A DNA stretch of 64,000 nt from an uncultured Armatimonadota bacterium (GTDB lineage: Bacteria > Armatimonadota > Fimbriimonadia > Fimbriimonadales > Fimbriimonadaceae): the NCBI GenBank assembly GCA_903833215.1, contig CAILEM010000073.1, positions 1 to 64,000 of the forward strand, read 5' to 3'. Below the pieces are notes generated by a model. It was not told where the DNA came from, made no database searches, and was given only the letters and a program-made list of their open reading frames with translations. Position 1 is the stretch's first letter. The number at the start of each line of letters is the position of its first letter. The position numbers and the translations under genes are program-made. This document shows, one piece after another, positions 16,523 through 43,674 of the stretch.

Positions 16523-19500
16523 TTATCGCGTGATTACGACTAGAGCCGATGCGGATCCTCCACCGTTAGGTGCAGTAGCCGTTACGATTGTAGACAGCGC
16601 ACGAGATACTCGGATTCCCTTCACCGCGAAGCTGATCTTGTTGGTACCAGCTGGGATAAGGTATCCGCCTGCATTGAGATTCAAGATCGGATTCGTCTGC
16701 GACACCGTGACGAGCGAGCCACCAGCAGGGGCTGGCGAATCCAATGTGATGGTGCAGATCGAAGTTCCGAACAAGCCTCGGATTGTGGCAGGCGAGAACG
16801 CGATGGAAGTTACGCCAACCGTTCGCACTTCAAGGTTAGCCGACTGGGCTTGATTCGCCGAGCCGCCTTGAACGTTTGCGGTGATGACGCAGTCTTGAGT
16901 CGGACCGGTCTGAACCGCAGTGTTGATCGTGAACGTTCCCGTCAACGCACCACCTGCGATGGTCGCAGTTCCTGAACCGTTGCCTGGCGTTCCGCCGAAG
17001 AAAGCGTCATTTGGATGATCGCTCGTTAGCGTAAAGCTTAGGCCCGCAGCAGGAGCGGCCGAAGTCAGCGTGATCGTTCCAGTGGCGATGCCACTAGGAC
17101 CGCCAACCACCGATCTTGGTGCTACTTTGAATCCAAAGGAAACACCGTCAACCGTAAGGAGTTGGTTGATCACAACCGATCCGCGCTGTGCGGTGATGGT
17201 CGCCGTCTGTGTTGATCCCAACACGCCGGTCTTGATACTGAACGTTGCACTCGTTGCACCTGAAGGAATCAGTACCGTTGCTGGCACTGTCGCAACCGAT
17301 GTATCGCTGCTTGAGATGTTAACAACCACGCCACCATCTGGCGCCGCCTGATTGATGATTACCGTTCCTGTCGAAGTTCCGCCTCCACCAACTTCCGTTG
17401 GCGAAATTGTGAATGTCGTAAGGTTCTGAGCAGTTACGAACAGCGTTCCCGTAATCGATTGGATCGGGTAGTTGTTCTGCGCTGGTCTTGTCGCGGTGAT
17501 GATCGTCTGTGTGCTAGCCAACTCGTATGGCGTTACCACGGTGAACTGCTGGGCAGTGTCGCCTTGGTTGAACGTCAAGCTGGTGATCGGCAGTCCGCTG
17601 TTTGGATCGGCGAACGTGAAGGCAGGGTCGCTTGAAGTCAGATTGACAACAAACGGACCGGTTGCTTGGCCGTCCAGAGTAAGCGTCGCAGTAGCTGGAG
17701 TTCCACCGCTCACCGATGCAGGATTGAACGTGAGCTGAGAAAGGCTAGCGAGCGTCAGCGTTAGCGTCTGAGTAATACCTACGCCTAGAAGCGAACCTGT
17801 GACCTGCGGATAGGAGATAACACCTACACCGTTGGTGTTAATCGTGAACGTAACGGAGGTTTGACCCTCTGGAACGTTGACGGTTGCACCGGCAGGGAAC
17901 GATACGAGCGAAGGGGTGTCAGTGAGGATCGTTACGTTAACGCCGCCGCTTCCCTTAGGAGGCAGAGCAGCCAACGTGATTCGACCATTTACTGAGTTAC
18001 CACCGACGACGCTGGTTGGCGTCAAGCTCAGCTGTTGTAGCCAAGGAATGACTGTGAACAGGCCAATCTGGAAGCTACCCTGATAGGAAGCCTGCACCTG
18101 GACTGGAGTCGTGCTGGTGACAGCGTTCGAGTAGACCGTAAAGGTTCCAGTCGTTTGACCGGCAGCAATTGCTATCACGAGCGTCGATGTCTGCGAGGAA
18201 GCCGAGAACGATGCTGCAGTCGTGTTGTTCAACAATGTGAGCACAACGTCCGCACCACCATTTGGAGCTGCCTGGCTGAGCGTAACCGTACCGGTAGTGC
18301 TCGCACCAAGTCCACCAGGAATCGTGGACGGGCTCAACGAGATACCACTGATGGATGCGAGTCCAACTCGAAGTTTATCGAGCCAACCATCCTTCTTGTA
18401 GGTTACTTGGATTGTGTCAATCGGGAATCCAGGGGCAGTCGTCGTAGGTGCCCAGCTCCACGGAGTGTAGCTTGGATACGTTGGAGAGAGTGCACCGTAG
18501 AGAATTCCGTTCAGCTGTGTGTAGCCACCAGCGTCAGGCGTGGCTTTGAAAGCCAACGGTGAGATCATCGCTCTTGGAAGCCAGTCTTCAGCCTTGTCGT
18601 CACGGAAGTCGTGAGGATTGAAACTACTGTCGAACAGTACATAGTCTCGGAAGGTATCAACCCATCCAAACACCCAGACGTCGCCAAAGCTGTCGACGTA
18701 AGGACCAAAGCAGCGATCATCCAACGCACCACCTAAATAGGTGCCGTACGTGAGTTGATCAGCGGCAGGATTCAAGATATTCAGGAATCCTTTGACTGTG
18801 GCCATGTCGCCCGCAGTCCCGCCGGTCGGTTGCATATTCGTTGGGACGAGAGCATCAGCAGTCGTCTGAATAGCACCAAGCGGCATATTCGTCGGTACGT
18901 TCGGGTTCCCAGCTTTCGTTGGGTCGAAGTTGTACGTATCGGGGAATTCGAAATAGTCCGGATGGACGTTTCCTGTAATAAAAGCGTCGCCGCGAAGGTC
19001 GACGGCTATTCCAGAAGGAAGCACCAATCCACTCGTCTTCAGATTCGTTGAATAAAGAATCTGCGAAGCATCGGTGTTGATCTTCGTTACGGTTACGTTT
19101 GCATTCGCATCGAAGGTCTGACCATACACGCCTCGAGTCCGTGGGAAGTTGAAAGAACCAGCAATTCCAACGATGTACAGATCAAGGTTGGAGTCGATAT
19201 CAATCGCATTTCCAGAATTGTAAGTAGTTCCGTCTTCGTCGAAGTCTAAACCACCCACGTAATCATTGTCACTACCACCGAGAACAGCGGAATACGCGAG
19301 TGCCCCATCTGCCTTGTACTTCTGAACGAAAAGGTCATTGTTGCGGAGGAGTCGTCCGTTAGTGAATACACCAGGAGTCGTCGTAAACACGGCAGAGCCA
19401 CCGCCTTTACTTGTGTCGACATTACCCTGGAAATAGATCGATCCACCCGTATAAACAGAACCCTGGAGATCGATCTGAACACCAGTCAAGTCGATTCCAT

Positions 19501-21220
19501 TTCCGCCCGTAACATAACGACTCACGTTCGGGTCAAGAGTAAACGTGTTCGTTGTACTCGAGAACATGTATTTGGCAACGTATCCACTTTGAGCCCCACT
19601 AAAGTTGGGTATCTCGCTGACGCCTGACTGTACAGTGCCACCAAAGACGAAGTGAATAGGATTGCCTGGAGCAGGATTCGATTCGGGCTGAATCGCGAAA
19701 CCCGCCAACATTTCATCATTGCCGCCGAAGAACTGAACCGACTCGTTTCCTGGATTTGGATCCAGAACCTGAGTAGCGCTCTGTTGGAAACGCATGACGA
19801 AGATCGACGAAGTCATTGGTGCGAACGCGAAGTTCGCGCCCTTAACGTTTGACTTGACCACAGCAAGAACTAACGGAAAGTTGCTTGGCAGAGTTACTTG
19901 GTAGGTTGCTCCCTTCGCAAGTGTAAGGCCCGCAGGGACAGCCTGAACGGCCGCTGGAATACCAACAGCGTTGAGGGCGTTCTGCACATCAACGTCGGTG
20001 GCATTGAACGCCAACGGCGCCGTGTTGGTGCCTCTATTGCGGCTCAGCTGTTTGTAAGTTCCGTAGCCAACAATAAATGCACCGGACGTAGCTGGCGTAT
20101 TATCAGGAGACAGGAACTGAACATTATTGCGAGTACTGCCTGGAAAGTCTGAGGATGTCGTTCGTCCAGCAATCCAGATATCACCAAATGGGTCGACTTT
20201 GATGTACTGCGCGTTATCGTCCATCGATCCACCTACATAGGCGGAATAGAACTGATCGAAGGCGTCACCCTGAAGTTTTGCTACGAAGGCATCTCGAGTC
20301 GAGCCATCGCTGTGCAACGAGAATCCATATGGACCATCGATGCCAGGAAAGTCAGTGGCCCAAGTATAGCCAGCGAGATACACGCCTCCAGCATTGTCCG
20401 TCGTGACGGTGTTGACGGAATCGAATCCGGAGTCGCCACCATAGTAGCTTCCGTAAACGAGCGGGTCAATAACCAGCACCTTGGAATGGTCATAGGCACC
20501 AAGGCTGAATCCATACTCATCCTTGCCGCATGCCACAAACTTCGCTGACACAGGCTTCTGCTTACCATTTACATTCTGGTAGGCGAAAAGCTTGCCGTGC
20601 GACAAAGTTCCAATCTGTGTTGAAAGAGCGATTGCGTTGCCCTTGATCGAAGTCTTGTCCGCGCCATGAAAAGCGAGTCGGATGACAGATGGATCAACAT
20701 TGGGGCGAACGATCAGGTCATATCGCGGCTTATCCTGATCGTAGTACGAGCGAACATTAACGCCCGGATACACGTCCTTCGCTAAAACGCTGGAGAAATT
20801 CCCAGCGTCCTGCTTGGACTTGCAGCTACTTTTGAAATACAACGTGTTATAGCTAAGTTTATTCACGCCGACGGGAGCAAAAGACGAAGCCCCCTTGAAC
20901 GACATGGTTACAACTTGCCCCTTCTTTCCGGAAGCCTTTCTTGAGGGCTTCAGTTGGAAGTAGTCAAACGTAATTCCCTTATTCGTCATCCACTCGTTGA
21001 GGTGAGATGAACGGGCAAGGAAAAGCGCCTTCTGTGGCCATTGGCCGGCGTTTTGGATAAATCGAGCGGAAGCATGTTCCAGCTTCTTCTGAGCCGATGG
21101 AACTGAAAGCTGATTGACCTTCGCGGCGCCATGAGGCCCGCCGGCGAAGGATGAACTGGCAAGCAGCCCAAAAACACCCAGCAAGCCCGCGCATCTGATG
21201 CGATTACTTAACAAGAGCAC
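16523..21220 (-). CDS. Large secreted protein with beta-propeller (SBBP-like) and Ig-like tandem repeats
   Basis: About 1565 residues. Signal peptide near the N-terminus (LLGVFGLLASSSFAGG). Next comes a module beginning ARFIQNAGQWPQKALFLARS, known from proteins with SBBP beta-propeller repeats; the propeller repeats follow (GGVYLAGYTWATDFPG, GDIWIAGRTTSSDFPG, GDAFITGNVHPDYFEFP). From about residue 1000 on there are about seven Ig-like or Calx-beta-like repeats of 90-100 residues, each opening like SPTEVGGGGTSTGTVIINQAAPDGG. No anchor or sorting motif ends the protein. The frame runs to a TTG at 21316; I chose the GTG at 21220 because AGAGGTG lies 8 nt upstream and the signal peptide begins there. 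Likely surface or extracellular; no catalytic domain seen. Confidence 0.85.
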   Translation of the reverse strand: MLLLSNRIRCAGLLGVFGLLASSSFAGGPHGAAKVNQLSVPSAQKKLEHASARFIQNAGQWPQKALFLARSSHLNEWMTNKGITFDYFQLKPSRKASGKKGQVVTMSFKGASSFAPVGVNKLSYNTLYFKSSCKSKQDAGNFSSVLAKDVYPGVNVRSYYDQDKPRYDLIVRPNVDPSVIRLAFHGADKTSIKGNAIALSTQIGTLSHGKLFAYQNVNGKQKPVSAKFVACGKDEYGFSLGAYDHSKVLVIDPLVYGSYYGGDSGFDSVNTVTTDNAGGVYLAGYTWATDFPGIDGPYGFSLHSDGSTRDAFVAKLQGDAFDQFYSAYVGGSMDDNAQYIKVDPFGDIWIAGRTTSSDFPGSTRNNVQFLSPDNTPATSGAFIVGYGTYKQLSRNRGTNTAPLAFNATDVDVQNALNAVGIPAAVQAVPAGLTLAKGATYQVTLPSNFPLVLAVVKSNVKGANFAFAPMTSSIFVMRFQQSATQVLDPNPGNESVQFFGGNDEMLAGFAIQPESNPAPGNPIHFVFGGTVQSGVSEIPNFSGAQSGYVAKYMFSSTTNTFTLDPNVSRYVTGGNGIDLTGVQIDLQGSVYTGGSIYFQGNVDTSKGGGSAVFTTTPGVFTNGRLLRNNDLFVQKYKADGALAYSAVLGGSDNDYVGGLDFDEDGTTYNSGNAIDIDSNLDLYIVGIAGSFNFPRTRGVYGQTFDANANVTVTKINTDASQILYSTNLKTSGLVLPSGIAVDLRGDAFITGNVHPDYFEFPDTYNFDPTKAGNPNVPTNMPLGAIQTTADALVPTNMQPTGGTAGDMATVKGFLNILNPAADQLTYGTYLGGALDDRCFGPYVDSFGDVWVFGWVDTFRDYVLFDSSFNPHDFRDDKAEDWLPRAMISPLAFKATPDAGGYTQLNGILYGALSPTYPSYTPWSWAPTTTAPGFPIDTIQVTYKKDGWLDKLRVGLASISGISLSPSTIPGGLGASTTGTVTLSQAAPNGGADVVLTLLNNTTAASFSASSQTSTLVIAIAAGQTTGTFTVYSNAVTSTTPVQVQASYQGSFQIGLFTVIPWLQQLSLTPTSVVGGNSVNGRITLAALPPKGSGGVNVTILTDTPSLVSFPAGATVNVPEGQTSVTFTINTNGVGVISYPQVTGSLLGVGITQTLTLTLASLSQLTFNPASVSGGTPATATLTLDGQATGPFVVNLTSSDPAFTFADPNSGLPITSLTFNQGDTAQQFTVVTPYELASTQTIITATRPAQNNYPIQSITGTLFVTAQNLTTFTISPTEVGGGGTSTGTVIINQAAPDGGVVVNISSSDTSVATVPATVLIPSGATSATFSIKTGVLGSTQTATITAQRGSVVINQLLTVDGVSFGFKVAPRSVVGGPSGIATGTITLTSAAPAAGLSFTLTSDHPNDAFFGGTPGNGSGTATIAGGALTGTFTINTAVQTGPTQDCVITANVQGGSANQAQSANLEVRTVGVTSIAFSPATIRGLFGTSICTITLDSPAPAGGSLVTVSQTNPILNLNAGGYLIPAGTNKISFAVKGIRVSRALSTIVTATAPNGGGSASALVVITR

Positions 21221-21330
21221 AAGTACGACACCTCTAAATCGAGTAGAACCCCAATTGCATGGCTGAACAAATTTGGCAATGCCCTCTGAACAGCCTCCGC
21301 ATGAGGAATACCCCAAACGGTTGCGTGCAC

Positions 21331-22066: not shown

Positions 22067-23407
22067 CTAGAAAAGGTGCTCTAGCTTTCCGGTGCTATCT
22101 CCAAGCGTCTCCGTCGGTAATCCCATCCGGTCCAACATTGACAAGAACAGGTTATTCAACGGTGTACCGTTTGGATAAACCGCGTGAACGCCCTGATGAA
22201 TAGTGCCGCCCGCTCGACCCGCCAACAAAATGGGAAGATCATCGTGGTTGTGACGGTCACCGTCACCGATCCCTCCACCATAGCAGACCATCGAATTATC
22301 GAGGAGGCTACCTTCGGGCTCCTTGATGGACGCCATCTTTTCGAGGATGTATGCCAACTGAGTGACGTGGAATTGATCGATCTGGCTCTTTTTCTTCAGC
22401 TTCATCGGATCCGTTCCGTGGTGGGACATATCGTGATGCCCTTCTGGAACTCCGATCAACGGATAGCTTCGATTACTGCCTTCATTCGCAAACATGAAGG
22501 TCGCCACCCGCGTCAAGTCCGACTCGAATGCCAAAATCATCATATCTCCGAGCAAACGGATGTGCTCTGAATAATCCTGGGGAACACCTGACGGAATTCG
22601 TACGCCACCCGCATTCGCAGTTGAAGTCACCCGATCAAACTTGGAAAGTCTCTCTTCGATCTCGCGAACCGCGGTGAAGTACTCATCAAGCTTCCGTTGA
22701 TCGCGGACACCAAGTTCCGTTCTCAGCCTGCTCGCATCTTCCATCACGAAATCGAGGACGCTGCGGTTATAGCGACTCCTGAGAACCCGACTCTCCAGCG
22801 TCTCACCCTTTTCGCCTTTCCCGAACAATCTCTCAAAGATCAGCCTCGGATTCACTTCCTTAGCCATGGGCGTCGACTCACCTCGCCAGGAAATGTTCGA
22901 CGAATAGGCACAACTGTAACCAGAGTCACAGTTCCCCGCTTCGGCGCCACGTTCGCATCCAATCTCAATGGATGGAAATGGCGTTAGGTGGCCAAGCCGG
23001 ACGGCCGCGACTTGATCTGCGGAGATTGCGGCTTTGATGTCAGCACCTGCCGTCTTTTTTGGGTGCACGCCGGTGAGCCAAGCCGCAGCAGATCGGGCAT
23101 GGTCTCCTGGCCCATCTCCCAGAGCGAACGCGTTTCGCTGAGACAGACCCGTAAGGACTGAAAATTGGCCACGCACCCTTTGCAGTGGTTGGAGAACCTC
23201 GGGAAGGACAAAACCCGGTCCCTCGCTGGATGGTGTCCAATGCGGCATGCTCATGCCGTTTGGCACAAACAAGAAAGCCATTCGGGTGGTCCGAACCTTT
23301 GCAGATGAGGCCAAGGCAGTAAGCGGCAGCATCGCTTCAAGTAATGGCAGTGCCATGACGGTACCGATGCCTTTCAGGAATGTCCTACGTGGAATTAGCC
23401 GACTCAT
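22067..23407 (-). CDS. DUF1552 exported protein
   Basis: 446 residues. Leader PRRTFLKGIGTVMALPLLEAML is Tat-like. Family landmarks: LFVPNGMSMPHWTP, FSVLTGLSQRNAF, DGPGDHARSAAAWLTGVHP, SIEIGCERGA and PLIGVPEGHHDMSHHG. DUF1552 proteins belong to the same broad alkaline-phosphatase-like group as DUF1501, and their genes are regularly paired with DUF1592-type cytochromes. The start overlaps the stop of the upstream gene by ATGA, so the two are translationally coupled. Substrate unknown. Confidence 0.92.
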   Translation of the reverse strand: MSRLIPRRTFLKGIGTVMALPLLEAMLPLTALASSAKVRTTRMAFLFVPNGMSMPHWTPSSEGPGFVLPEVLQPLQRVRGQFSVLTGLSQRNAFALGDGPGDHARSAAAWLTGVHPKKTAGADIKAAISADQVAAVRLGHLTPFPSIEIGCERGAEAGNCDSGYSCAYSSNISWRGESTPMAKEVNPRLIFERLFGKGEKGETLESRVLRSRYNRSVLDFVMEDASRLRTELGVRDQRKLDEYFTAVREIEERLSKFDRVTSTANAGGVRIPSGVPQDYSEHIRLLGDMMILAFESDLTRVATFMFANEGSNRSYPLIGVPEGHHDMSHHGTDPMKLKKKSQIDQFHVTQLAYILEKMASIKEPEGSLLDNSMVCYGGGIGDGDRHNHDDLPILLAGRAGGTIHQGVHAVYPNGTPLNNLFLSMLDRMGLPTETLGDSTGKLEHLF

Positions 23408-25716
23408 TTACCTTTACCTCCGACAACCCGCTTCTTTCGGAACGGGTCACTTGTCACAACCGCATTCACAAGGGCAGAAAACCGATTGCCGCTTGTTTCA
23501 CAGACGCTCGCGATTTGATCAACGCTGCATTTATCAAATGCTTCAACGCCTCGTCCAAGCGCATACGTTAGCAGTTTTTCTGACATGCTGCGAACAAAAT
23601 CTTTCTTCTTCTTGATGAGAATTGCCGTCAGCTCTGGAGCACCTTGGAATTTGGTGCCGTCAGGTAGCACTCCCGACGAATCGATGGGCACTCCACCTTC
23701 CTGTGATCGCCAAGCTCCAGTCGCATCGAAATTTTCAAGACTGAACCCGAGTGGATCCATCTTTTTATGACACGAAGCACATGCAGGGTCTTTTCGATGG
23801 CGCTCCATCTTCTCCCTGAGCGTTGCTGCAGCCATTTGCTTACCGTCATCAGGCAGCACACCGACATTGGGTGGTGGAGGTGGGGGTGGAGTGTTCAGAA
23901 TCTGCTCAAGAACCCATTTACCGCGTTTGACGGGCGAGGTCCTCGTTGGATTCGAGGTCAGAGTCAAGACGCTGCCTTGAGTCAACACGCCACCGCGTGG
24001 TGTGCCGACGAGGGACACTTTGCGGAACTGATCGCCAGTGACTCCAGGAATTCCATAGTGCTTGGCAAGCTGTTCGTTGATGTAGGTGTATTTAGCATCC
24101 AGGAAGTCGATGATGCTTCTATCGTTCTTGACGACGCCGTCGAAGAACATCTTCGTTTCCGTCATCATCCCAGCGCGAAGCTGCTCGTTGAAGTCGGGGA
24201 ACTGGGCAGGATCTGGGTTAATCAGCGCCAACTTCCTCAAGTTAAGCCACTCCTCAGCAAAGTTGTCTCCGAGTGATGCGCTCTTAGGGCTACCTAACAT
24301 CCTCCTCACTTCAGCTTTTAGCACGACAGGCTTCTTGAGATCTCCAGTGGAGGCAAGGCGGAACAGTTCCTCATCTGGCATCGATCCCCAAAGGAAATAT
24401 GAAAGTCGAGAGGCCAGTTCGTAACTTCCAAGATTTGGCGACCCATCTGACCGTTCCACTCGAAAAAGGAATTGTGGCGATGAGAGAATCGCTTGTACGC
24501 AAAGCTGTATGGATTTCTCAAAGGGCTGTCCATCTTTGTGGACGTACTCAGCGATTTTCATCAGCCGGCTAATTTCGTCGACGGTTGGTGGGCGCCGGAA
24601 TGCTCGGCTTGCGAATTTGCTCAGGATTCGTTTCGCGCTAGGCTGCCACTCCGCCGCACTTGGCGTCTCGAAAATAATCCGCTTGTGGACATCTGAAAGT
24701 GCCGAGGACTTCATCAAAGGCTTGTACATGTCCATGTACCGGACAATGAGATTTCGGTCCTCAACAGGAGGTCCTGGTCGATAGTAGTCGTTAGCAAACT
24801 TCAGCGCAATGCGATGTTTGCCGGGATCGAGTGGGAGAGTGACCTCGTACACTTCGGGGCGCTTTTCAAGCGCCTTCACGTCGAATACCATCGCTGGCTT
24901 GTTGTCGATCAGCAATGCCATCTTTGCCGCATCAGGACCAGCCTGTTGGGCACTCGCCTCGATTCGGAATTTGTAGTTGCCGGCGAGCGTTAGGTATTGG
25001 TCGGTAAAAGCTTGACCTTCCGAGGCAAAGAAAATCTGGGTCTGATCACCTACTGCGGCGCCGGTGGTGACCTTCAAGTTCTCGTTATCAAACCTAACTG
25101 GTTTTGTGTCAGGAACCTGAATGGCCTTGGATGCAATTTCTTCCGCCGCCTTCAGGTACTTCTCCATCAGCAGTGGTGAAATCGAGAGGACGTCGCCGAT
25201 ATTATCAAAGCCGTAACCGACGTCGTCCGAGGGAAAATCTTCTGCGAGCCGAAGATCAAGACCAACCAGATCACGAACGGTGTTGTCGTACTCGCGACGA
25301 TTCAGCCTTCGCATCGTCACATGACCGGGATCGATAAGTTTGCAGTCACCGGAAAGGGTCAGGTCAAGCCAACGAACCATCGAATCACGTTGTGCCTTTG
25401 TGGGTTGAGGCATTCCTTCCGGTGGCATATGGCCAGAAGCCACATTTTTTGCCACCCGACTCCACAACTCAGTGTTCTTTTGAATCGATGCCGCGTCCGA
25501 AAATCCTGTCAATACGATCCCGGCAGGTGCCCGGCCACCCGAGTGACACGTGACGCAGTACTTGTCGACGATCGGCGCGACCGACTTCGAAAAGCTGGGT
25601 TGAGCAACTGCGACTGCTTTCTTCTTTTTTGAACTCTGGGTCGGAGAAGATGAGACAACTGTCGCGGCCAAGAAAGCGCTTGCACCGACAAATACTAAAT
25701 ATCTCGAATCTATCAA
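23404..25716 (-). CDS. DUF1587/1592/1588/1585 planctomycete-type cytochrome protein
   Basis: 770 residues. After an export signal (FLAATVVSSSPTQ) comes a c-type cytochrome motif, YCVTCHSGGRAPAG; then DUF1587 (MRRLNRREYDNTVRDLVGLD), a carbohydrate-binding-like region, DUF1595/1592 (SYFLWGSMPDEELFRLA), DUF1588 with a second haem motif (ACASCHKKMDPLGFSLENFD) and C-terminal DUF1585 (LLTYALGRGVEAFDKC). Start is a TTG at 25716; CAGGGC lies just upstream. It is the first gene of the pair with DUF1552, likely an exported redox partner. Confidence 0.9.
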   Translation of the reverse strand: MIDSRYLVFVGASAFLAATVVSSSPTQSSKKKKAVAVAQPSFSKSVAPIVDKYCVTCHSGGRAPAGIVLTGFSDAASIQKNTELWSRVAKNVASGHMPPEGMPQPTKAQRDSMVRWLDLTLSGDCKLIDPGHVTMRRLNRREYDNTVRDLVGLDLRLAEDFPSDDVGYGFDNIGDVLSISPLLMEKYLKAAEEIASKAIQVPDTKPVRFDNENLKVTTGAAVGDQTQIFFASEGQAFTDQYLTLAGNYKFRIEASAQQAGPDAAKMALLIDNKPAMVFDVKALEKRPEVYEVTLPLDPGKHRIALKFANDYYRPGPPVEDRNLIVRYMDMYKPLMKSSALSDVHKRIIFETPSAAEWQPSAKRILSKFASRAFRRPPTVDEISRLMKIAEYVHKDGQPFEKSIQLCVQAILSSPQFLFRVERSDGSPNLGSYELASRLSYFLWGSMPDEELFRLASTGDLKKPVVLKAEVRRMLGSPKSASLGDNFAEEWLNLRKLALINPDPAQFPDFNEQLRAGMMTETKMFFDGVVKNDRSIIDFLDAKYTYINEQLAKHYGIPGVTGDQFRKVSLVGTPRGGVLTQGSVLTLTSNPTRTSPVKRGKWVLEQILNTPPPPPPPNVGVLPDDGKQMAAATLREKMERHRKDPACASCHKKMDPLGFSLENFDATGAWRSQEGGVPIDSSGVLPDGTKFQGAPELTAILIKKKKDFVRSMSEKLLTYALGRGVEAFDKCSVDQIASVCETSGNRFSALVNAVVTSDPFRKKRVVGGKGK

Positions 25717-31259: not shown

Positions 31260-31553
31260 GACTTAAGAAAAGGGAGAACGGCCCAGATTATCACGCTGCG
31301 CGGATCTCCTTAACTGCTCAGCCTGCCCGGTCCATCGAAATTGCGAAGTAATCAGCAGAGTCTTTTGTCATGGAAAACAATGATGGTGCCTTGGATTTTA
31401 CGGGCATCGTTAGTGGCCTTTGCCACATCCACACCCACCGCATTCGACCTATCCGCTGTAAGATGGAAGTGGTTTGATGCTCAGTTTCACCCGCATTCAC
31501 TAAACAGTGTTTGGGAGGATTCGTCTGAGCAGGCTTGCCGTGGGTTATTGAAT

Positions 31554-33023
31554 ATGGATGCACAGCAGAAGGTTTCCCATCTCCTTCGTCGCTTTGGCCT
31601 TGGCGCTGGTCAAATTGAGCTCGAAAAGTATCTACCACTCGGAGTGGCAGGCACCATTGAACGCCTGATCGAGTACGAAAAAGTCCCCGTTGGCCCCACT
31701 CCTGCAATTTGGGAGTGGTACGTCCAGCAGGACGCCAAATATAGTCTTGACCCAACCAGGGTTCGAGCGTGGTGGCAGTACCGGATGATCACTACCGAGC
31801 GTCCGCTTGAAGAAAAACTTACCGTCTTCTGGCATAACCACTTTGCGATTAGTGGATCAAAGTGCGACTTCGGGCCACTGATGCATAACTATGTAGAGAC
31901 CTTGCGCGATAACGCGTCCGGTAGCTTTTCGACCCTGCTCAACTCCATAAGCAAGTCGCCTGCAATGCTCAAATGGCTGGACGTCGACCAAAGTGTGCCT
32001 GGCCATCCAAATGAGAACTTCGCGCGCGAGGTAATGGAACTGTTCACCTTAGGGATTGGGAATTACACCGAAAAAGACGTTCAAGAGGCTTCAAGGGCAT
32101 TCTTGGGCTGGAGCCTGCGATATCCAATCTATGAGCGCCTGGGTGGCGACCAGAATCAGAAAATATTGGGGGCAATGGAACACGGCTGGCCACTCGTAGC
32201 CTCTAGTTTTTCGCCTGAGATGCGGGATTTTGGACACAAGACGATTCTCGGCAAGACTGCTGCCTACGATGCCGACACATTCCTACGCGTGCTTGCATAC
32301 CACCCGATCACTGCAAAGCGAATGGTAGCCAAGATGCTGTCGTATTTCGCCTACGATCATCCATCGCCTCAAACGGTCGATAAGTTCGTCAAGATTTGGT
32401 ACAAGAACGACCTTCACATCAAACCGTTCTTGAAAGCTCTCGCGGAGTCCAATGAGTTCTGGAGTGAACAGTGCGTGGGTACCCGTGTAAAGAGCCCCGT
32501 CGACTTTGTCGTCGGGCAACTCCGCCAATCCGGTTTCGGCCCGCGCCTTGCGGCACGTCGGCCCCACAATGCCCTTCCCACCCAGACGATGCTGACGGTC
32601 GCAAATGACGAAATTGGTCAGGTCGCCCGGACTATGCGAAACCAAGGCATGGACCTACTGTTTCCATTCGACGTTAGCGGTTGGAAATGGGGCCCTGCAT
32701 GGCTAACAACCGCCACCATGCTAGAGAGAATCCGGTGGCAGGACTTCATGTTTACCCAACGAGGTAAGAATGGAGCACCAGCCCAACTCGTCTTGGAACG
32801 TCTTGTGGCGGACAAGGATACAAAAACGTCCACCGAGTGCGTGGTGTCGATCCTCGATATCTTCGATGTAACCCTAAGTTCCGAAAAGCGTGAACTGCTG
32901 ACAAAGGCCATCGATGCCTTGGGCGGACCGCAAAAAGCTTTCGCTAATGTGAATCAAGCAGGTAATTCAATGCGTCGGGTGTGCAAAATTCTCTTCTCAT
33001 CACCAGAAGCACAGCTTTGTTAA
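31554..33023 (+). CDS. DUF1800 family protein
   Basis: 489 residues from the ATG at 31554, which begins MDAQQKVSHLLRRFGLGAG, the usual DUF1800 opening. Other family marks: PLEEKLTVFWHNHFAIS, MLKWLDVDQSVPGHPNENFAREVMELFTLGIGNYTEKDV, GHKTILGK and FPFDVSGWKWG. DUF1800 proteins often sit beside a DUF1501 gene in one operon, but no partner is adjacent here. The frame continues upstream to 31341 without a recognisable signal peptide. Function is unknown; association with exported DUF1501 proteins is known only from genome context. Confidence 0.85.
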   Translation: MDAQQKVSHLLRRFGLGAGQIELEKYLPLGVAGTIERLIEYEKVPVGPTPAIWEWYVQQDAKYSLDPTRVRAWWQYRMITTERPLEEKLTVFWHNHFAISGSKCDFGPLMHNYVETLRDNASGSFSTLLNSISKSPAMLKWLDVDQSVPGHPNENFAREVMELFTLGIGNYTEKDVQEASRAFLGWSLRYPIYERLGGDQNQKILGAMEHGWPLVASSFSPEMRDFGHKTILGKTAAYDADTFLRVLAYHPITAKRMVAKMLSYFAYDHPSPQTVDKFVKIWYKNDLHIKPFLKALAESNEFWSEQCVGTRVKSPVDFVVGQLRQSGFGPRLAARRPHNALPTQTMLTVANDEIGQVARTMRNQGMDLLFPFDVSGWKWGPAWLTTATMLERIRWQDFMFTQRGKNGAPAQLVLERLVADKDTKTSTECVVSILDIFDVTLSSEKRELLTKAIDALGGPQKAFANVNQAGNSMRRVCKILFSSPEAQLC

Positions 33024-33143: not shown

Positions 33144-36100
33144 CTACTTCTTGTTTGGTAGATTGACCGTTCCCTTCCGGTCCACTTTGCCCCACACTTG
33201 GCGATTTCCGCCGACGGCGCGCAAGAAAGACTTGTAGACCACCCCGTACATGATCTGCCGGTAGGCAAATCTCTGAAGGAACAACCACCAGAGAGCCCCG
33301 AATTTTTCCTTATCGAGTCGGTAAGCAATAACGCCGGAGCCGAGTTCGGCGAGGAAGAACATGGCGTACAAGAATCCGACCTGGGTTAACGACGCCGACG
33401 CTGCTGGTAGCCCCGAAAGCTCCTCGCTAGGGTGCATCCGATGAGTCACAAACGCCATCAAATATCCAATCATCGAGTAAAGAACTTGTAGGTCCACCAA
33501 GGGCGCCAGGGCTTGGAATACGATTTGAAACAGCCACAGCGTGGGTAGAGCTAGCCAACCGAAGAAACCGTTGTGGAAAAGAGCTCGTCGATGCTTGACA
33601 AGGCACTGCAAAGTCCCATAGGCCCATCGGAATCTCTGCTTGAAGAAAGCACCAAAACTCTGAGGGGCTTCTGTGTACGCAAGCGCACCTGGTTCGTTTT
33701 CCAAGCGATAGCCGGCTCGCCTTAACCTCCACGTCAAGTCCATATCTTCCGCCAGAGTGTCGTTGATGTACAACCCGGCATCGGTGACAGCCTGCCTTCG
33801 CCAGATCCCAATGGCTCCGGGAACAACCGTGATGCTATTCAGTAACGCATAAGCACGTCGGTCTATGTTCTGGCTAGTCGTGTATTCCACCGCTTGCCAT
33901 TGCGTCAGGATATTCACTTGATTTCCGACTTTCACGTTGCCCGCCACGGCGGCTACTTTCGGATCTTGAAAATGTCGAACCATCAGCCCAATCGCACCTG
34001 GATCAACTTGAGTGTCGGCGTCAATCGAAAGATAGAGTTCGGCACCACAGTGAGCAATTGCATCGTTGAGTGCAGAAGCTTTTCCGCCGTTAGCTCTCGT
34101 AATGAGAGTTACCCGAGGATCGGAGCCATAAGCATCGACGACCGCCTTACTCGTCCCATCGGTGGATCCATCATCGACAACGATGACTTGAGTCACCGGA
34201 TAAGTTGATGCTAAAACGCTTGAAATCGTTCTAGTGATGACCGTCTCTTCATTAAACGCGGCAATGGCTACGGCTACCTCGGGACGATAACCAGCATCAT
34301 AAGTTTTTCGTTTCTGGCGGCGGTGGTCAATCAATGCCAACGGTGTCACAACCGCAATTCGGGCAAAGCCCAGCCAAATAGCGGCAAGAAAGCCAATTGC
34401 TAGCAACCAGTCGATGGTGAAGATCGTGCCGAACTCAATTCGCGCCAAAAAGATCGTGAAGCGCTCCGAGGGCAGCGTGTCCGGCATGACCTGGTCGCGA
34501 GTCCTTCCCATCAACTGGGCGACACTGACGAATTTATAGCCTTCCTTTTTGAGCTGAGGGACGAATATCTTCAGAGCAGCGATCGTGGCGTCACGATTCC
34601 CCCCCGCATCGTGCAGCAAGATGATGTTTCCTTCATCCTTGGTAGCTTCAAATCGCTTGATCTGGCCAACGATATCCGTGGCAATATCTTCGCCTGTCTT
34701 TGGGCGAGATGTCCCATTCGGTAACGCAAGCCTTAGGCTCCAATCTTGGGGATCGATCTTCTCGCCGACAGTGACGTAGTGTAACCGGGCCGCAATCTCA
34801 ACCGGAGTCAGTTCTTCTTTGTTGCTCGGCTCAGAGTCAGCGTTGTACGGGGGCCGGAACAGCGAAGTTGACTTACCGAGGATGGTTTCGATCACCCTTA
34901 AGGTTGCGTTGATTTCAAGTTCTGCTCGAAATGTACTTATCGTGCCCAAGTCAGGATGGGAGAACGTGTGATTCCCCACCTCATGACCCTCGTCATATTC
35001 TCGTTGAATAACTCCAGAGTTCTCTTCGGCATTCTTCCCGACGATAAAGAACGCGGCCGGAACATTTAGTTCTTTGAGTGCATCAAGAATCTTCGGCGTA
35101 TAAGTAGGATCCGGACCATCGTCAAACGTAAGGCAAAGGCTTTTCTCAAAGTAGCCAGAGTGCTGAAGCACGTAAGGAAAAGCATACTGCTGATACTCTT
35201 CGTCAATAATGACTCCGTCGTCGTCGACCTTAAAAACACGCTTACCGTCGGTCGGTTTTTCAGCGACACGAAGAAGTTCGCCCTTTCCTATGTTTGAGAT
35301 GAAATATGGGAACTTCACGACATTCAGGGCATCGGGCGACATCACTTTCGTGAAAGCTTTCGGACCGAGGAACGTCCAAATCCCCGGGTCTTCTTGGCCA
35401 AGAGCCCAAACCGCCGCGCCCCTCAGATCGTAGGTACGGGCAGATAACCATTGGTTATACGCCGACACAGCGTCAAGCATCCAGACTCGATGCATGTCGT
35501 TGTTATCGTCTTCGTAAGAAAATGTCGCGTTGAGGCTATCTGGATCAAAGTCAATCACTTTGGACGGTGGGGCGTCGTTATAACCTTTGGCGGTATCCAT
35601 CGCCTCCTGAAAACTCAAGCTATCGGCAAGTTTGTCTTTGGAGGAAGTATTCCAGTCGTACGCATAATTGCCAATTCCAAGGACAACCTTTTCCGCTGGA
35701 ATCTGCCGCAGGGTTGCTTCAAGAACCTGTTCACACCACTCTGCTCCAGCGATTGGCCCTGCAAAATCCTCCTCGGAGTGTTGGTCATACGCCATCAGCA
35801 TGATCCAGTCACAGGCATCCGCCAGTTCCTTGGTTTTCGTGGTTTCGTTCCCAGCCTCAACATCCACACTCACACCCAGTTTTGAGGGGTGAAATGCGGC
35901 GTGAACGAGCTTTACGAAGCCCGGCAACTTTGGATAGTCCTCTGCTTCAAGTTCCTCAAAATCTAGGTTGATCCCTTGAAAATTGTTCTTGACAACCCAA
36001 TCGTAGAGCCGCTTGATCAAAGTCTTTTGATTCGCTTCTGAACTGAGCAGCTTGTGCACGATTTTGGGGTCCCAAACGCCGCCTTTGCTGTTGCTGATCA

Positions 36101-36620
36101 GCGGGACGATGCGAAGACCAACACTGTGTGCAATTTCCAGGACGCGCTCGTTCTTTGGATTTTCCTCAAGATCGAAGTCACTAAAATCGATACTGGTGCC
36201 GTCCGGTCCGAGCGTCAACCACGCTGGAATAACGTGGGTAAGGTTTTGCTTATAGGCATTGAGGGAGTGGATTCCAGATTCTTCCCAAGGTGCATAAAAA
36301 CCGGCAACGATCTTCTCAACATGGGCTGGTGGACTCTTGGTCTTCCCTTTCGTGCGCTCAATTTCTGCCAACAGGTCCTTTCGAACCTTACTGCTCAAAA
36401 AGAGCGACTTATGCGGAGGCTCATCGGGCAAATTAGCCAGCAACCCGCCATTCTTGTGTGCCTTGGGCACCGGGTCCCTCAGAAGAGGAACCGTAAAGCA
36501 CATGATTATCGCGAAAATGGTGCTTGCCACAGCCACGACAGAGCTGATGATCGCGGCGAACCGAGACATCCTTACACGACGCTTGCCGTGTGGGTCATAA
36601 AAAATCGGTTCGGAATCCAT
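33144..36620 (-). CDS. Three-domain fusion: GH18-like hydrolase, NodB polysaccharide deacetylase and GT2 synthase
   Basis: 1158 residues. Residues about 18-42: transmembrane anchor. About 95-440: GH18 domain with GINLDFEELEAEDYPKLPG (catalytic Asp-x-Glu retained, as in YaaH-type proteins). About 490-700: NodB deacetylase with LTFDDGPDPTYTP (metal Asp), HTFSHPDLG (HxxxH) and FRPPYN. After a second membrane helix (WLLAIGFLAAIWLGF), a processive GT2 domain: VVDDGSTDGT, SIDADTQ, EDMDLTWRLRRAGY and QRFRWAYG, then several membrane helices. It can thus make, trim and deacetylate one surface polysaccharide, probably N-acetylhexosamine-based (PNAG or chitin-like); that substrate is inference. Confidence 0.93.
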   Translation of the reverse strand: MDSEPIFYDPHGKRRVRMSRFAAIISSVVAVASTIFAIIMCFTVPLLRDPVPKAHKNGGLLANLPDEPPHKSLFLSSKVRKDLLAEIERTKGKTKSPPAHVEKIVAGFYAPWEESGIHSLNAYKQNLTHVIPAWLTLGPDGTSIDFSDFDLEENPKNERVLEIAHSVGLRIVPLISNSKGGVWDPKIVHKLLSSEANQKTLIKRLYDWVVKNNFQGINLDFEELEAEDYPKLPGFVKLVHAAFHPSKLGVSVDVEAGNETTKTKELADACDWIMLMAYDQHSEEDFAGPIAGAEWCEQVLEATLRQIPAEKVVLGIGNYAYDWNTSSKDKLADSLSFQEAMDTAKGYNDAPPSKVIDFDPDSLNATFSYEDDNNDMHRVWMLDAVSAYNQWLSARTYDLRGAAVWALGQEDPGIWTFLGPKAFTKVMSPDALNVVKFPYFISNIGKGELLRVAEKPTDGKRVFKVDDDGVIIDEEYQQYAFPYVLQHSGYFEKSLCLTFDDGPDPTYTPKILDALKELNVPAAFFIVGKNAEENSGVIQREYDEGHEVGNHTFSHPDLGTISTFRAELEINATLRVIETILGKSTSLFRPPYNADSEPSNKEELTPVEIAARLHYVTVGEKIDPQDWSLRLALPNGTSRPKTGEDIATDIVGQIKRFEATKDEGNIILLHDAGGNRDATIAALKIFVPQLKKEGYKFVSVAQLMGRTRDQVMPDTLPSERFTIFLARIEFGTIFTIDWLLAIGFLAAIWLGFARIAVVTPLALIDHRRQKRKTYDAGYRPEVAVAIAAFNEETVITRTISSVLASTYPVTQVIVVDDGSTDGTSKAVVDAYGSDPRVTLITRANGGKASALNDAIAHCGAELYLSIDADTQVDPGAIGLMVRHFQDPKVAAVAGNVKVGNQVNILTQWQAVEYTTSQNIDRRAYALLNSITVVPGAIGIWRRQAVTDAGLYINDTLAEDMDLTWRLRRAGYRLENEPGALAYTEAPQSFGAFFKQRFRWAYGTLQCLVKHRRALFHNGFFGWLALPTLWLFQIVFQALAPLVDLQVLYSMIGYLMAFVTHRMHPSEELSGLPAASASLTQVGFLYAMFFLAELGSGVIAYRLDKEKFGALWWLFLQRFAYRQIMYGVVYKSFLRAVGGNRQVWGKVDRKGTVNLPNKK

Positions 36621-36634
36621 GGATCAGTCGACGA

Positions 36635-37894
36635 TCAAACCCTTAGGTAAGTTCTCTTCCTGTATAGCACTAGGAGAATTAACCACCAGCAGCAAATGTA
36701 CACCCATGTGTACGCCCATCCGCCTGGAACTCTTCCAAAGCGGTTCACAAGGGAGTCCAAGAAGGCTTCTTGAAGGGACATGTTACCCCTATGGGTTGAC
36801 ACCGTCCAGGATGAGAACATCATCACCTTGGTAAGGACAGGCAGCACATAAGCAAGCAGTGCATTCGAACCTAAGACCATCAGAGCAAATGGCCATTTGT
36901 TCCACTTTACGGCGTCAGTGAGAAGGTAGAACGCAGCCAATACCAACACGCCAACGCCTCCCGTTACGAGGATGTAGGATGGCGTCCAAACCGGTTTATT
37001 GTAGGGCAGAAACGAGTTGGCCAAGATTCCCGCTGCCAGCAGCACTGATCCTGAAATCGTCATCGTCAAGAGCCGCCGCAGCGGGTTCAGCTTTCGATTG
37101 ACAAGTGCATCTCCAATCATCGACGCGAAAATCATCAACGCAGACGTTGGAATGACTGAGAACAAACCATCGAGGTTGTATTTGACCAAGTAGGTTCGAT
37201 TGATGTGATCGATAAAGTTCGTATTTTCGAGAAACGTCCCGGCTTGGGCTCCTGGAATAGGAAGATATCGGATCGCCAGGCCATAGCCGGCAAGAAAACC
37301 AACAGCGATGATCGCCCTACGAACCAAAGGGAGTTCGTAGGCAAACGCAGACACCAGATACGAGAGCCCAATAAGTTGCAGGACACCAAGGGTGAAAACG
37401 ACTTGCTTGGATATGGCCGCATTGATCAAACATCCAAGTAGTACTAAACCTACGGCTCGCCCCACAATCTTGATGTCGTGGCGCCAGCTTGGAAGCCCCT
37501 TTTTCTTAAAGGACGCAAATGATTGCGGAATCGCGAAACCGACGCAAAGCAGGAACCATGGAAAAACAAAATCGGCCAGCCGAAGCCCCTGATTCCATCC
37601 AGCATGGGTAAATGGGTCCGGCGTGTACGTATCCAAAGCGACATTGTTGACGATCAGCATCAGGAGGACGGTCAGTCCGCGAAATGCATCAAGTGACACG
37701 AGCCTTGTCGTTTTTGGGATAGGCGTAGGTTTCGTGGTCTCAGTCTGCTCAGGGATGGAAGGAGACTCCTTCTCAACCCAATTGACACGGTTTAACTTGT
37801 CGCGTGTTTCAAAGTCATCGGCAAGCAAGTTTGCGACAATCGCCCTGTATCGAGGCTCTTCAGCAGGCTTGGGATTTGACTCAACGACTTTCAT
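36635..37894 (-). CDS. HGSNAT/NagX-like membrane acyltransferase (DUF5009/DUF1624)
   Basis: 419 residues with about ten transmembrane helices. The N-terminal RLVSLDAFRGLTVLLMLIVN and the following HAGWNQGLRLADFVFPWFLL are the signature of heparan-alpha-glucosaminide N-acetyltransferase-like proteins. In that family an acetyl group is passed from cytoplasmic acetyl-CoA across the membrane to an amino sugar. The neighbour at 33144-36620, 14 nt downstream, handles N-acetylated polysaccharide in my reading, so a joint role in amino-sugar acetylation is plausible. A GTG at 37924 is an alternative start to the ATG at 37894. Confidence 0.82.
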   Translation of the reverse strand: MKVVESNPKPAEEPRYRAIVANLLADDFETRDKLNRVNWVEKESPSIPEQTETTKPTPIPKTTRLVSLDAFRGLTVLLMLIVNNVALDTYTPDPFTHAGWNQGLRLADFVFPWFLLCVGFAIPQSFASFKKKGLPSWRHDIKIVGRAVGLVLLGCLINAAISKQVVFTLGVLQLIGLSYLVSAFAYELPLVRRAIIAVGFLAGYGLAIRYLPIPGAQAGTFLENTNFIDHINRTYLVKYNLDGLFSVIPTSALMIFASMIGDALVNRKLNPLRRLLTMTISGSVLLAAGILANSFLPYNKPVWTPSYILVTGGVGVLVLAAFYLLTDAVKWNKWPFALMVLGSNALLAYVLPVLTKVMMFSSWTVSTHRGNMSLQEAFLDSLVNRFGRVPGGWAYTWVYICCWWLILLVLYRKRTYLRV

Positions 37895-38015
37895 GGCTTT
37901 CTGATCGACCCCAAAACGCAGCACAATTTCCGTGCCGTTTTGTGGAGGGACGAACCAGAAGACAATTACGATCCTGAAGATTCACTTATCAGGGTGGAAT
38001 CGTGTCAGAAGACCG

Positions 38016-41814: not shown

Positions 41815-42584
41815 GCTCTAGAATTCTTGTAATCGACGACGAACAAAGTCTGCGTACGATGATAAAACTGGCCCTTGAGCATGGGGGCTATATCGTCGAA
41901 ACCGCATGTGACGGCCCTGACGGGCTCTCCAAGTTTGGCGATGGGAAAGCTTGGGATCTTGTGCTCTTGGATAACCGAATGCCAGGAATGTCTGGTATCG
42001 ACGTAGAGCATGCGATCTTCCAGAGATCACCTGACATGCGTGTGATTCTGATCACGGGGTTTGGGACAATTGACCTAGCGCTGGAGGCGATTCAAGCCGG
42101 AGCATCTGATTTTCTCCGAAAGCCATTCACTCCCGAAACTCTCCGCAACACGGTCAAGGCTGTCCTCGAGAGACCTGTACAACGCATGACAGCAGTTCCA
42201 GTTGGCATGGCGTGCAAAGAATTCACACGCACCACAATTAACGGCTTCAGTTTTGAACTGGACACCCGAACAGTTGATGATGCGACCAACGACACGACTT
42301 GCGTCTTTGTCGTGAACCACGCCGGTGGCGGCGCGTCAAAAGTCACTGTGATCCTTCACGCATACGTAATGGAGCTCGTGAAGGCCTATTCAGACACCGA
42401 ATCCGTTCCAGGAGAAAACCACTTCTGGCAAGCCATGTGCGAGGAAGCACTGGCTAATTATCTATGGCAGAACGCTGCACCGCCAAAAGATAAAGTTCTA
42501 GAAATTGACGATCTTTCGAGTAGCCTCCGTCGCTGGCTCGATTCCGTTCTTACAGTCAGCTTAGCCGAAGAAAATGCCCGATAG
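41811..42584 (+). CDS. Response regulator with unrecognised C-terminal output domain
   Basis: 257 residues. Receiver domain at about 4-120 with the phospho-acceptor Asp54 (LLDNRMPG), acidic pair DDE near the start, Thr in ILITGFG and Lys in DFLRKPFTPE. The remaining about 130 residues (TCVFVVNHAGGGASKVTVIL, FWQAMCEEALANYLWQNAAP, SSSLRRWLDSVLTV) match no output domain I know: not OmpR, NarL, NtrC or GGDEF. The TTG start at 41811 overlaps the kinase stop (TTGA), with GGGGAT upstream; no other start would keep the receiver whole. The stop overlaps the KdpD-like gene by 11 nt. Confidence 0.88.
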   Translation: MSSRILVIDDEQSLRTMIKLALEHGGYIVETACDGPDGLSKFGDGKAWDLVLLDNRMPGMSGIDVEHAIFQRSPDMRVILITGFGTIDLALEAIQAGASDFLRKPFTPETLRNTVKAVLERPVQRMTAVPVGMACKEFTRTTINGFSFELDTRTVDDATNDTTCVFVVNHAGGGASKVTVILHAYVMELVKAYSDTESVPGENHFWQAMCEEALANYLWQNAAPPKDKVLEIDDLSSSLRRWLDSVLTVSLAEENAR

Positions 42585-43674
42585 TAGTCAAAAGCCCACT
42601 CTCAAGGGTGGCAAACACAAGATCTTTCTCGGATACGCGCCGGGAGTCGGCAAAACCCACGCAATGCTTGAGGAAGCACATCGTAGGAGCTTGCGCGGAC
42701 AAGACGTTGTCATTGGAATCATCGAGGGGCGTCACCGCCGCCCGGTAGAAGAGCTGGAGTTCGGACTTGATCGAGTACCGCCGTTGGTGATTGGCGGCAA
42801 GAACGAACTCGATGTTGAGGCGATACTTGCCCGAAAACCCAATGTCGTCCTCGTTGACGATTTGCAGCACACCAATGCACCAGGATCTGTCCGGGAAAAA
42901 CGATGGCAGGATGTCAATGTACTTCTGGGCGCCGGGATTCGAGTCCTTTCGACGGTAAACGTCCAACACCTTGAGAGCCTCAATGACAACATCTCGGACA
43001 TCACTGGCATTCCGATTTTGGACACGGTTCCAGATCAGATGCTCAGAGATGCTGACGAAGTTGAATATGTCGATTTAACGCCGCGTGCGCTGATTAATCG
43101 ACTCGATCGAGGGGATATCTTCCCAATTGAGCAGGTCGGTTCGGATATTGTAAGCTTCTTCCGAGAAGGCAATCTGAGCGCACTACGCGAAATTGCCATG
43201 CGGGAAGCCGCTTGGCGGGTCGACGAAGATGTCGTTGAATACCGCAAAGAGAAGCGAATTGAGAAGCCATGGGCCGCTCAGGATCGAATCCTTATTTGCA
43301 TCAGCCCCACTCGAAGTGCCCTGCGCTTGATTCGCCGGGGATGGCGGATGGGACAGCGAATGCATGGAGAAGTCCTTGCCGTGCACGTTGAAGAGGGCCC
43401 TATCGGCGACAGAGAACGCAAGATCTTAGAAGATGACTTCAAACTTGCCGAGCGGCTCGGTATAAAGACCTTCACGCTCAAAGGTGAGCTCGCGCCCGTG
43501 TTGATCGAGTTTGCTAAAGAACGCAACGTTACACAGTTGATTCTTGGGCACCCTCAACGAAACAGATTTCAAGAGATCCTAAGGCCCGCAGTTTTGACAG
43601 AGCTAGTCAAAGCACTCCGAACGGTGGATATCCTTGTGGTTGCCACTGATTCGCCCGTAGTGGCAGAACACTAG
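42574..43674 (+). CDS. Orphan KdpD sensor: KdpD N-terminal domain plus universal stress domain, no kinase
   Basis: 366 residues. The KdpD N-terminal domain (about 14-225) has a Walker A-like GYAPGVGKT at 20-28 and VVLVDDLQHTNAPGS in place of the usual VDELAHTN. A USP-like domain follows (about 245-360: ILICISPTRSALRLIRRGWRMG ... LILGHPQR). The four membrane helices, GAF and kinase core of full KdpD are absent, and the stop is clean, so this is an evolved short form rather than a truncation. In KdpD the USP domain binds c-di-AMP in some Firmicutes and the N-terminus modulates potassium signalling. Its place between a regulator and a potassium transporter suggests the same role. Confidence 0.9.
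   Translation: MPDSSQKPTLKGGKHKIFLGYAPGVGKTHAMLEEAHRRSLRGQDVVIGIIEGRHRRPVEELEFGLDRVPPLVIGGKNELDVEAILARKPNVVLVDDLQHTNAPGSVREKRWQDVNVLLGAGIRVLSTVNVQHLESLNDNISDITGIPILDTVPDQMLRDADEVEYVDLTPRALINRLDRGDIFPIEQVGSDIVSFFREGNLSALREIAMREAAWRVDEDVVEYRKEKRIEKPWAAQDRILICISPTRSALRLIRRGWRMGQRMHGEVLAVHVEEGPIGDRERKILEDDFKLAERLGIKTFTLKGELAPVLIEFAKERNVTQLILGHPQRNRFQEILRPAVLTELVKALRTVDILVVATDSPVVAEH

What the first reader, a model, noticed from the sequence alone, without database searches (positions are those of the whole stretch)
33144..36620. Single-chain polysaccharide factory: GH18 + NodB deacetylase + GT2
Hydrolase, deacetylase and processive synthase are normally separate genes (as in pga/ica systems) but are here fused, each with its key residues intact. 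The next gene upstream is a HGSNAT-like membrane acetyltransferase, giving both removal and addition of acetyl groups. Together they may set the acetylation pattern of one surface amino-sugar polymer.
Basis: partly seen in the sequence, partly recalled or inferred. Interest (0 to 1): 0.5.

Follow-up and report, generated by a model that had tools for sequence, protein, structure and literature searches.

The report
Three-in-one surface sugar-polymer synthase
One membrane protein appears to carry the enzymes that build, trim and de-acetylate a surface amino-sugar polymer; the design is real and found in many bacteria and has been listed in print before, but I found no report of what it makes.

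Summary
ORF 33144-36620 (-) encodes 1,158 aa with GH18 (105-409), CE4/NodB (492-706) and a processive-type GT2 (780-1050); catalytic residues are intact, though the GH18 motif is a SleL/YdhD-like variant. The architecture is conserved: one frame in 13 of 61 genomes (own included) and in 52 contig loci of eight phyla. Function is inferred: a PgaC-like synthase extruding an N-acetylglucosamine-type polymer, with hydrolase and deacetylase held between its first two membrane helices.

Two claims need correcting. The fusion is not unprecedented: GH18-CE4-GT2 was listed for Acetivibrio (2012) and Sphingobacterium (2020), and Streptomyces MatB (CE4-GT2) is needed for PNAG. The HGSNAT-like neighbour is a local accessory: beside 5 of 13 fusions (window included) and 4 of 49 contig loci. 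Human HGSNAT acts on terminal glucosamine, so an internal acetylation pattern is beyond its known chemistry.

Linkage (beta-1,6 or beta-1,4) is undecided: the GT2 groups with CE4-GT2 proteins and scores best with PgaC, but deep branches are weak. New member of a known kind whose function I found nowhere described.

The parts
33144..36620 (-). GH18-CE4-GT2 fusion gene, 1,158 aa
36495..36551 (-). TM1 (aa 24-42) after a short basic N-terminus with the conserved FxDPxG(R/K)R motif
   Evidence: hydropathy 2.49; family consensus VFxDPxGRR; helix 13-42
35394..36308 (-). GH18 domain (aa 105-409), predicted extracytoplasmic
34503..35147 (-). CE4/NodB deacetylase domain (aa 492-706), predicted extracytoplasmic
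34347..34403 (-). TM2 (aa 740-758)
   Evidence: hydropathy 2.19, basic C-terminal flank
33471..34283 (-). GT2 domain (aa 780-1050 over two Pfam models), catalytic part predicted cytoplasmic; membrane helices at its end and after
36635..37924 (-). HGSNAT/NagX-like transmembrane acetyltransferase, 14 nt upstream of the fusion, same strand; start codon uncertain; residues aligned to human H297 and D307 present, and conserved in 7 of 7 orthologues
   Evidence: dyad from PMC11199644 passages

Best explanation
It is an inner-membrane polysaccharide synthase with its own tailoring enzymes. The cytoplasmic GT2 domain polymerises N-acetylglucosamine (or a close amino sugar) from the UDP-sugar and passes the chain through its own membrane helices. 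GH18 and CE4 sit in the extracytoplasmic loop between TM1 and TM2, so they are tethered near the expected exit: CE4 removes some N-acetyl groups and GH18 cuts where N-acetyl groups remain, because GH18 catalysis uses the acetamido group (established GH18 mechanism, recalled). The product would be a partly de-N-acetylated, length-limited PNAG- or chitosan-like surface polymer. In some close relatives an HGSNAT/NagX-like enzyme encoded just upstream could put acetyl groups back on glucosamine outside the membrane. Shown here: domains, residues, order, conservation, gene spacing, predicted fold. Inferred: sugar, linkage, topology, export, order of reactions, role of the neighbour.
For: Domains and intact residues. 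The best NCBIfam model for the GT2 is PgaC/IcaA, over positions 33-396 of 407. GT2 rows of the family form one clade with two CE4-GT2 proteins, 96/96. MatB, of CE4-GT2 architecture, is required for PNAG in Streptomyces, and its PgaC-like GT2 and PgdA/NodB-like CE4 mirror this protein (passages of PMC5972031). Topology: E. coli PgaC has two N-terminal hydrophobic segments before its GT domain; here GH18-CE4 lies between the equivalents. CE4 and GT2 catalytic residues 52 of 52. Fold matches on the GH18 and GT2 parts. The HGSNAT-like gene is 12-15 nt upstream in the window and in the 3 relatives read, and its His and Asp align with human H297 and D307.
Against: The PgaC model score (196 bits) is far below its 422-bit cut-off. 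GT2 deep branching is weak (43/52), and BcsA and ArnC could not be placed. Fold scores do not separate hyaluronan synthase (33.6), a mannosyltransferase (32.6) and BcsA (31.1). The CE4 relatives act on beta-1,4 substrates (so stated for MatB's; for GH18 recalled), which sits ill with a beta-1,6 product. 6 of 52 rows lack the GH18 catalytic glutamate, so hydrolysis is not essential to the family. 48 of 61 genomes lack an intact fusion, among them 10 of 20 in the genus (one of these has it split over contigs), so it is dispensable. No PgaA match in the genome (no positive control). pTM 0.65: domain placement is not safe.
Confidence: 0.68

Rival explanations
1. The product is a beta-1,4-linked chitin/chitosan-type chain or oligosaccharide (NodC/NodB-like logic), with GH18 as a true chitinase that sets chain length or releases oligomers.
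For: GH18 matches chitinases and SleL. The CE4 domain resembles NodB (32% over 225 aa, 2e-30) far more than PgaB (E 0.001). nodB and nodC are adjacent in rhizobia.
Against: GT2 scores better with PgaC than NodC (BLAST 134 v 107 bits). MatB looked 1,4-like in its CE4 domain, yet antibody, dispersin B and stain data pointed to PNAG (passages).
Confidence: 0.3
2. The GH18 domain is mainly a polymer-binding or guiding module (as PgaB's C-terminal domain was first described, abstract of PMC5933820) or a cell-wall-facing enzyme, not a trimming hydrolase.
For: 6 of 52 rows have lost the catalytic glutamate, and Verrucomicrobiota copies with a degenerate site keep the domain (L050-L053, L057; Pfam match for L057). 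Closest sequence relatives include spore cortex-lytic SleL and YdhD.
Against: D220 and E222 are intact in the window protein, and E222 is kept in 46 of 52 rows.
Confidence: 0.25
3. The HGSNAT-like neighbour belongs to a salvage step (NagX-type acetylation of free glucosamine or oligomers before uptake) and does not act on the polymer.
For: NCBIfam's only match is NagX (95 bits, below the cut-off of 480). NagX is important for glucosamine utilisation, with acetylation of periplasmic glucosamine proposed (passages of PMC9007349). Absent beside most fusions. Beside the G039 orthologue, which has no fusion, lies a PnrA/Bmp-type ABC substrate-binding gene.
Against: 12-15 nt spacing on the same strand in the four cases read. 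All 5 in-genus orthologues at E<1e-80 abut the fusion. In the window the neighbours scanned (MoeA, redoxin, DUF1800, MBOAT) include no sugar transporter or nag gene.
Confidence: 0.35

Closest known systems
GH18-CE4-GT2 proteins listed in Acetivibrio cellulolyticus (ZP_09465738, PMC3413522) and Sphingobacterium multivorum w15 (CE4-GH18-GT2, PMC7065263)
   Same: Same three CAZyme modules in one protein (passages).
   Different: In the passages seen they are only listed, with no function; their sequences were not compared here.
Streptomyces MatB (CE4-GT2, PNAG)
   Same: Deacetylase and GT2 fused through a membrane helix; PgaC-like GT2 (passages of PMC5972031). CE4-GT2 proteins from Streptomyces and Kocuria plasmids group with this family.
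   Different: No GH18 domain; MatB itself was not in the trees; works with MatA.
PgaABCD / IcaADBC (PNAG)
   Same: PgaB deacetylase plus hydrolase and PgaC synthase give the same three activities.
   Different: Separate proteins (for E. coli); PgaB's hydrolase is GH153, without GH18 catalytic motifs (passages of PMC5933820); PgaA not found (no control), PgaD not looked for.
Rhizobial NodB-NodC
   Same: CE4 plus processive GT2, adjacent genes.
   Different: Separate proteins, short chito-oligosaccharides (recalled), no GH18.
Divergent PgaB clades with GT-domain fusions (PMC7112194)
   Same: Deacetylase fused to GT, operons without pgaA and pgaD (passages).
   Different: Described there as N-terminal fusions, mainly of GT domains; GH18 not mentioned in the passages seen.

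Membership tests
GH18-CE4-GT2 multimodular family | All three domains in one frame, in the order GH18-CE4-GT2 | tested here: met
PNAG synthase PgaC/IcaA (TIGR03937) | Score above the curated cut-off of 422 bits | tested here: not met
   196 bits
PNAG synthase PgaC/IcaA | Groups with PgaC in a GT2 tree with support | tested here: inconclusive
   In an open fork with PgaC plus an Enterococcus GT2, Natrinema GT2 and BcsA; support 43/52
PNAG synthase PgaC/IcaA | Makes beta-1,6-GlcNAc polymer | not testable with these tools
   Needs chemistry or antibody
GH18 | TIM barrel with catalytic DxE | tested here: met
   D220, E222; Z 34.4 to 5jh8
CE4/NodB deacetylase | CE4 motifs with metal triad Asp-His-His | tested here: met
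   D500, D501, H551, H555, R589, D626, H670 each 52 of 52; roles recalled
PgaB | C-terminal hydrolase (GH153) after the CE4 domain | tested here: not met
   GH18 lies N-terminal of CE4
HGSNAT/NagX (neighbour) | PF07786 domain with the catalytic His-Asp dyad | tested here: met
   34.2 bits v cut-off 22; His and Asp aligned to human H297 and D307, present in 7 of 7 orthologues; dyad from PMC11199644
NagX equivalog (neighbour) | NF046061 above cut-off 480 | tested here: not met
   95 bits

The most novel reading that the evidence does not exclude
The pair is an acetyl-gated trimming machine, a biosynthetic mirror of lysosomal heparan sulfate breakdown. CE4 de-acetylates the emerging chain and so protects it from GH18; the HGSNAT-like enzyme uses cytosolic acetyl-CoA to re-acetylate terminal glucosamine outside the membrane, which makes that end cleavable again. 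Polymer length would then be tied to acetyl-CoA supply.
Probability: 0.08. Interest if true: 0.6.

Novelty: new member of a known kind. Interest (0 to 1): 0.3.

Why it matters
A single-gene synthase with built-in tailoring would be a compact test bed for how deacetylation and hydrolysis are coordinated with extrusion. [quoted passage not shown] The family occurs in many phyla, in the plasmid rows seen is mostly annotated just 'glycosyltransferase' or 'glycosyl transferase family 2', and is present in records of named strains such as Chthoniobacter flavus Ellin428 and Brevundimonas nasdae JCM 11415, so a gene-removal test may be feasible.

Tried and rejected
Rejected: that the fusion is an assembly or frame artefact (one frame in 13 of 61 genomes, and in 52 contig loci). 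Two further loci, L046 and L059, hold most of it without one open frame over it, and L044, L047, L048, L054, L055 and L056 matched only part of it; these eight of L001-L060 were left out of alignment A1, as was L035 (full length; same identity and match range as L031). Rejected: HGSNAT as a general partner of the fusion (4 of 49 loci). Looked for and not found: a neighbour family common to most loci; the commonest cluster was in 8 of 60 loci, 7 of them titled Acidobacteria(-ota) or Thermoanaerobaculia. Defence link: no PADLOC match. PgaA search of the own genome: empty, without a positive control, so it shows little. TIGR03937 search of 21 genomes: only the fusions scored near 200 bits, the next match 72.6. 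OpgH could not be used in the tree (no BLAST match); BcsA and ArnC had branch lengths of 10 and are unplaceable. Kocuria's GH18-like gene facing a CE4-GT2 gene (22.9 bits, below the cut-off 29.6) looked like a split version but is one case. PgaC was not among the solved-structure rows seen; this shows nothing about its fold. Two-domain proteins: Streptomyces groups with the Verrucomicrobiota copies (97/93), but Kocuria moves between (long branch) and no AU test was run, so 'GH18 loss gave MatB-like proteins' is only suggested.
Full report
What is there. The frame at 33144-36620 on the minus strand is a single ATG-started ORF of 1,158 aa. Pfam finds GH18 (105-409), polysaccharide deacetylase (492-596; by comparison with solved CE4 enzymes it runs to about 706) and GT2 (780-1050 over two models), each above its curated cut-off. 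The GH18 motif reads QGINLDFE: D220 and E222 are present, while two aspartates of the textbook DxxDxDxE (recalled) are Q and N. Solved relatives show similar variants (FSGINVDFE, FAGINLDFE). CE4 and GT2 motifs are complete.

Conservation. One genome-contig scan gave 172 pattern matches, 164 of them relatives, the best 80 kept. Of these 80, 52 hold a match over all three domains in one open frame of 1,123-1,246 aa; 51 of them plus the window form alignment A1. By record title or taxonomy these are Armatimonadota, Acidobacteriota, Eisenbacteria, Verrucomicrobiota, Pseudomonadota, Myxococcota, Bacteroidota and Ignavibacteriota, plus some unassigned. In 61 genomes (own included) 13 have the full fusion and one, G006, has it split over two contigs: 10 full plus the split one of 20 in the genus, 2 of 17 in the rest of the family, 1 of 24 in the rest of the order. 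Every one of the 61 has some match at E 0.001, but in the rows listed the others are partial, single-domain-sized matches. In the phylum 49 of 291 genomes match the CE4-GT2 half at E 1e-40 or better; by my count 42 of the 49 have a frame of at least 1,100 aa, though I did not check each for GH18. In plasmid records 17 of 1,014 matching records have one place covering at least 80% of the query: Sphingomonas, Novosphingobium, Sphingobium, Prevotella nigrescens, Deinococcus, Sulfitobacter and Limimaricola. So the architecture is old or widely transferred, and patchy.

Residues and decay. In A1 the CE4 and GT2 catalytic positions are 52 of 52, D220 is 49 of 52 and E222 46 of 52. The rows without E222 are L042, L045 and four Verrucomicrobiota rows (L050, L051, L053, L057); a fifth, L052, keeps E222 but has lost D220. 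The hydrolase is thus the most expendable part.

Topology and fold. Hydropathy gives one strong segment at 24-42 and one at 740-758, then segments after the GT2 domain; E. coli PgaC has two N-terminal hydrophobic segments before its GT domain. The simplest reading is that GH18 and CE4 sit in the loop between TM1 and TM2 of a PgaC-like synthase, outside the membrane. The AlphaFold2 model has mean pLDDT 88.1 but pTM 0.65, so relative domain positions are not safe. The GH18 part matches a Chromobacterium chitinase (Z 34.4) and SleL (33.8); the GT2 part matches hyaluronan synthase (33.6), a mannosyltransferase (32.6) and cellulose synthase (31.1), so the fold does not choose the sugar.

Which polymer. 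NCBIfam ranks PgaC/IcaA first (196 bits, cut-off 422), NodC 104, CelA 49. BLAST with the GT2 domain gives PgaC 134, NodC 107 and BcsA 44 bits; with the CE4 domain NodB 103 and PgaB 30 bits. In the GT2 tree of 85 rows the family and two CE4-GT2 proteins form one clade (96/96); PgaC is in the same open fork, with 43/52 support. A CE4-GT2 tree of 40 rows rooted on NodBC places Streptomyces two-domain proteins beside the Verrucomicrobiota copies with a decayed GH18 (97/93) and Kocuria at the base on a long branch. This suggests but does not prove loss of GH18 in MatB-like proteins; MatB itself was not available to me. MatB gave a similar mixed sequence signal and was shown to be needed for PNAG (passages of PMC5972031). 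I give PNAG-like somewhat better odds than chitin-like.

The neighbour. The HGSNAT-like gene ends 14 nt before the fusion on the same strand; in three relatives read the gap is 12, 15 and 15 nt. Five of the 13 genomes with a full fusion (window included) have it there. Of seven close orthologues (E<1e-80) in 61 genomes, five abut the fusion, one (G032) abuts a stand-alone CE4 gene without a fusion, and one (G039) abuts neither; its neighbours are a PnrA/Bmp-type substrate-binding protein and a URO-D protein. The window protein's His and Asp align with human H297 and D307, the catalytic dyad of PMC11199644 (passages), and are in 7 of 7 orthologues. Bacterial NagX is proposed to acetylate periplasmic glucosamine (passages of PMC9007349), and human HGSNAT acetylates terminal glucosamine (PMC2757673, start of abstract in a listing). 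So 'adds acetyl groups' is plausible, while 'sets the pattern along the chain' is beyond the known chemistry. In four relatives a divergent stand-alone CE4 gene lies beside the fusion or its HGSNAT gene (L121-L124). These are 42-49% identical to each other, but a CE4 elsewhere in the window's own genome is 39-46% identical to them, so they are not clearly a dedicated partner.

Novelty. The three-module architecture is in print: a table of PMC3413522 (2012) lists GH18-CE4-GT2 in Acetivibrio cellulolyticus, and PMC7065263 (2020) counts one CE4-GH18-GT2 protein in Sphingobacterium (passages). PMC7112194 describes deacetylase-GT fusions without pgaA/pgaD (passages). Ten literature searches, not all aimed at this point, showed no functional study of the three-domain protein in the listings and passages I looked at; subscription papers are mostly not held. 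Verdict: a real, conserved enzyme of a known kind, its function not described in what I could see.

Noticed in passing
L121:7050-7928, L122:8210-9124, L123:12978-13955, L124:11635-12510, L130:5047-6078: A stand-alone CE4 deacetylase gene lies divergently beside the fusion or its HGSNAT-like neighbour in four relatives, and beside the HGSNAT-like gene alone in G032 (L122 and L130 scanned by Pfam, the others by BLAST).
   Followed up: partly
L050, L051, L052, L053, L057: Verrucomicrobiota three-domain proteins have a degenerate GH18 active site (E222 or D220 replaced), while Chthoniobacter flavus also has a copy with an intact motif (L029).
   Followed up: partly
L167:2668-5973: Kocuria rosea plasmid: a CE4-GT2 gene faces a gene annotated as chitinase (weak GH18 match, below cut-off), possibly a split form of the same set.
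   Followed up: partly
window 42574-43674: A short stand-alone protein with a KdpD sensor domain and a Usp match; the frames before it (histidine kinase, response regulator) and after it (transporter, 623 aa) are my reading, not scanned.
   Followed up: no
window 23404-25716 and 31341-33023: A PSD/PSCyt-domain protein of the planctomycete type with a CBM60 match, and a DUF1800 protein convergent with the fusion and found nearby in two relatives.
   Followed up: no
window 16523-21316: 1,597-aa protein with DUF7948 and beta-propeller repeat matches.
   Followed up: no
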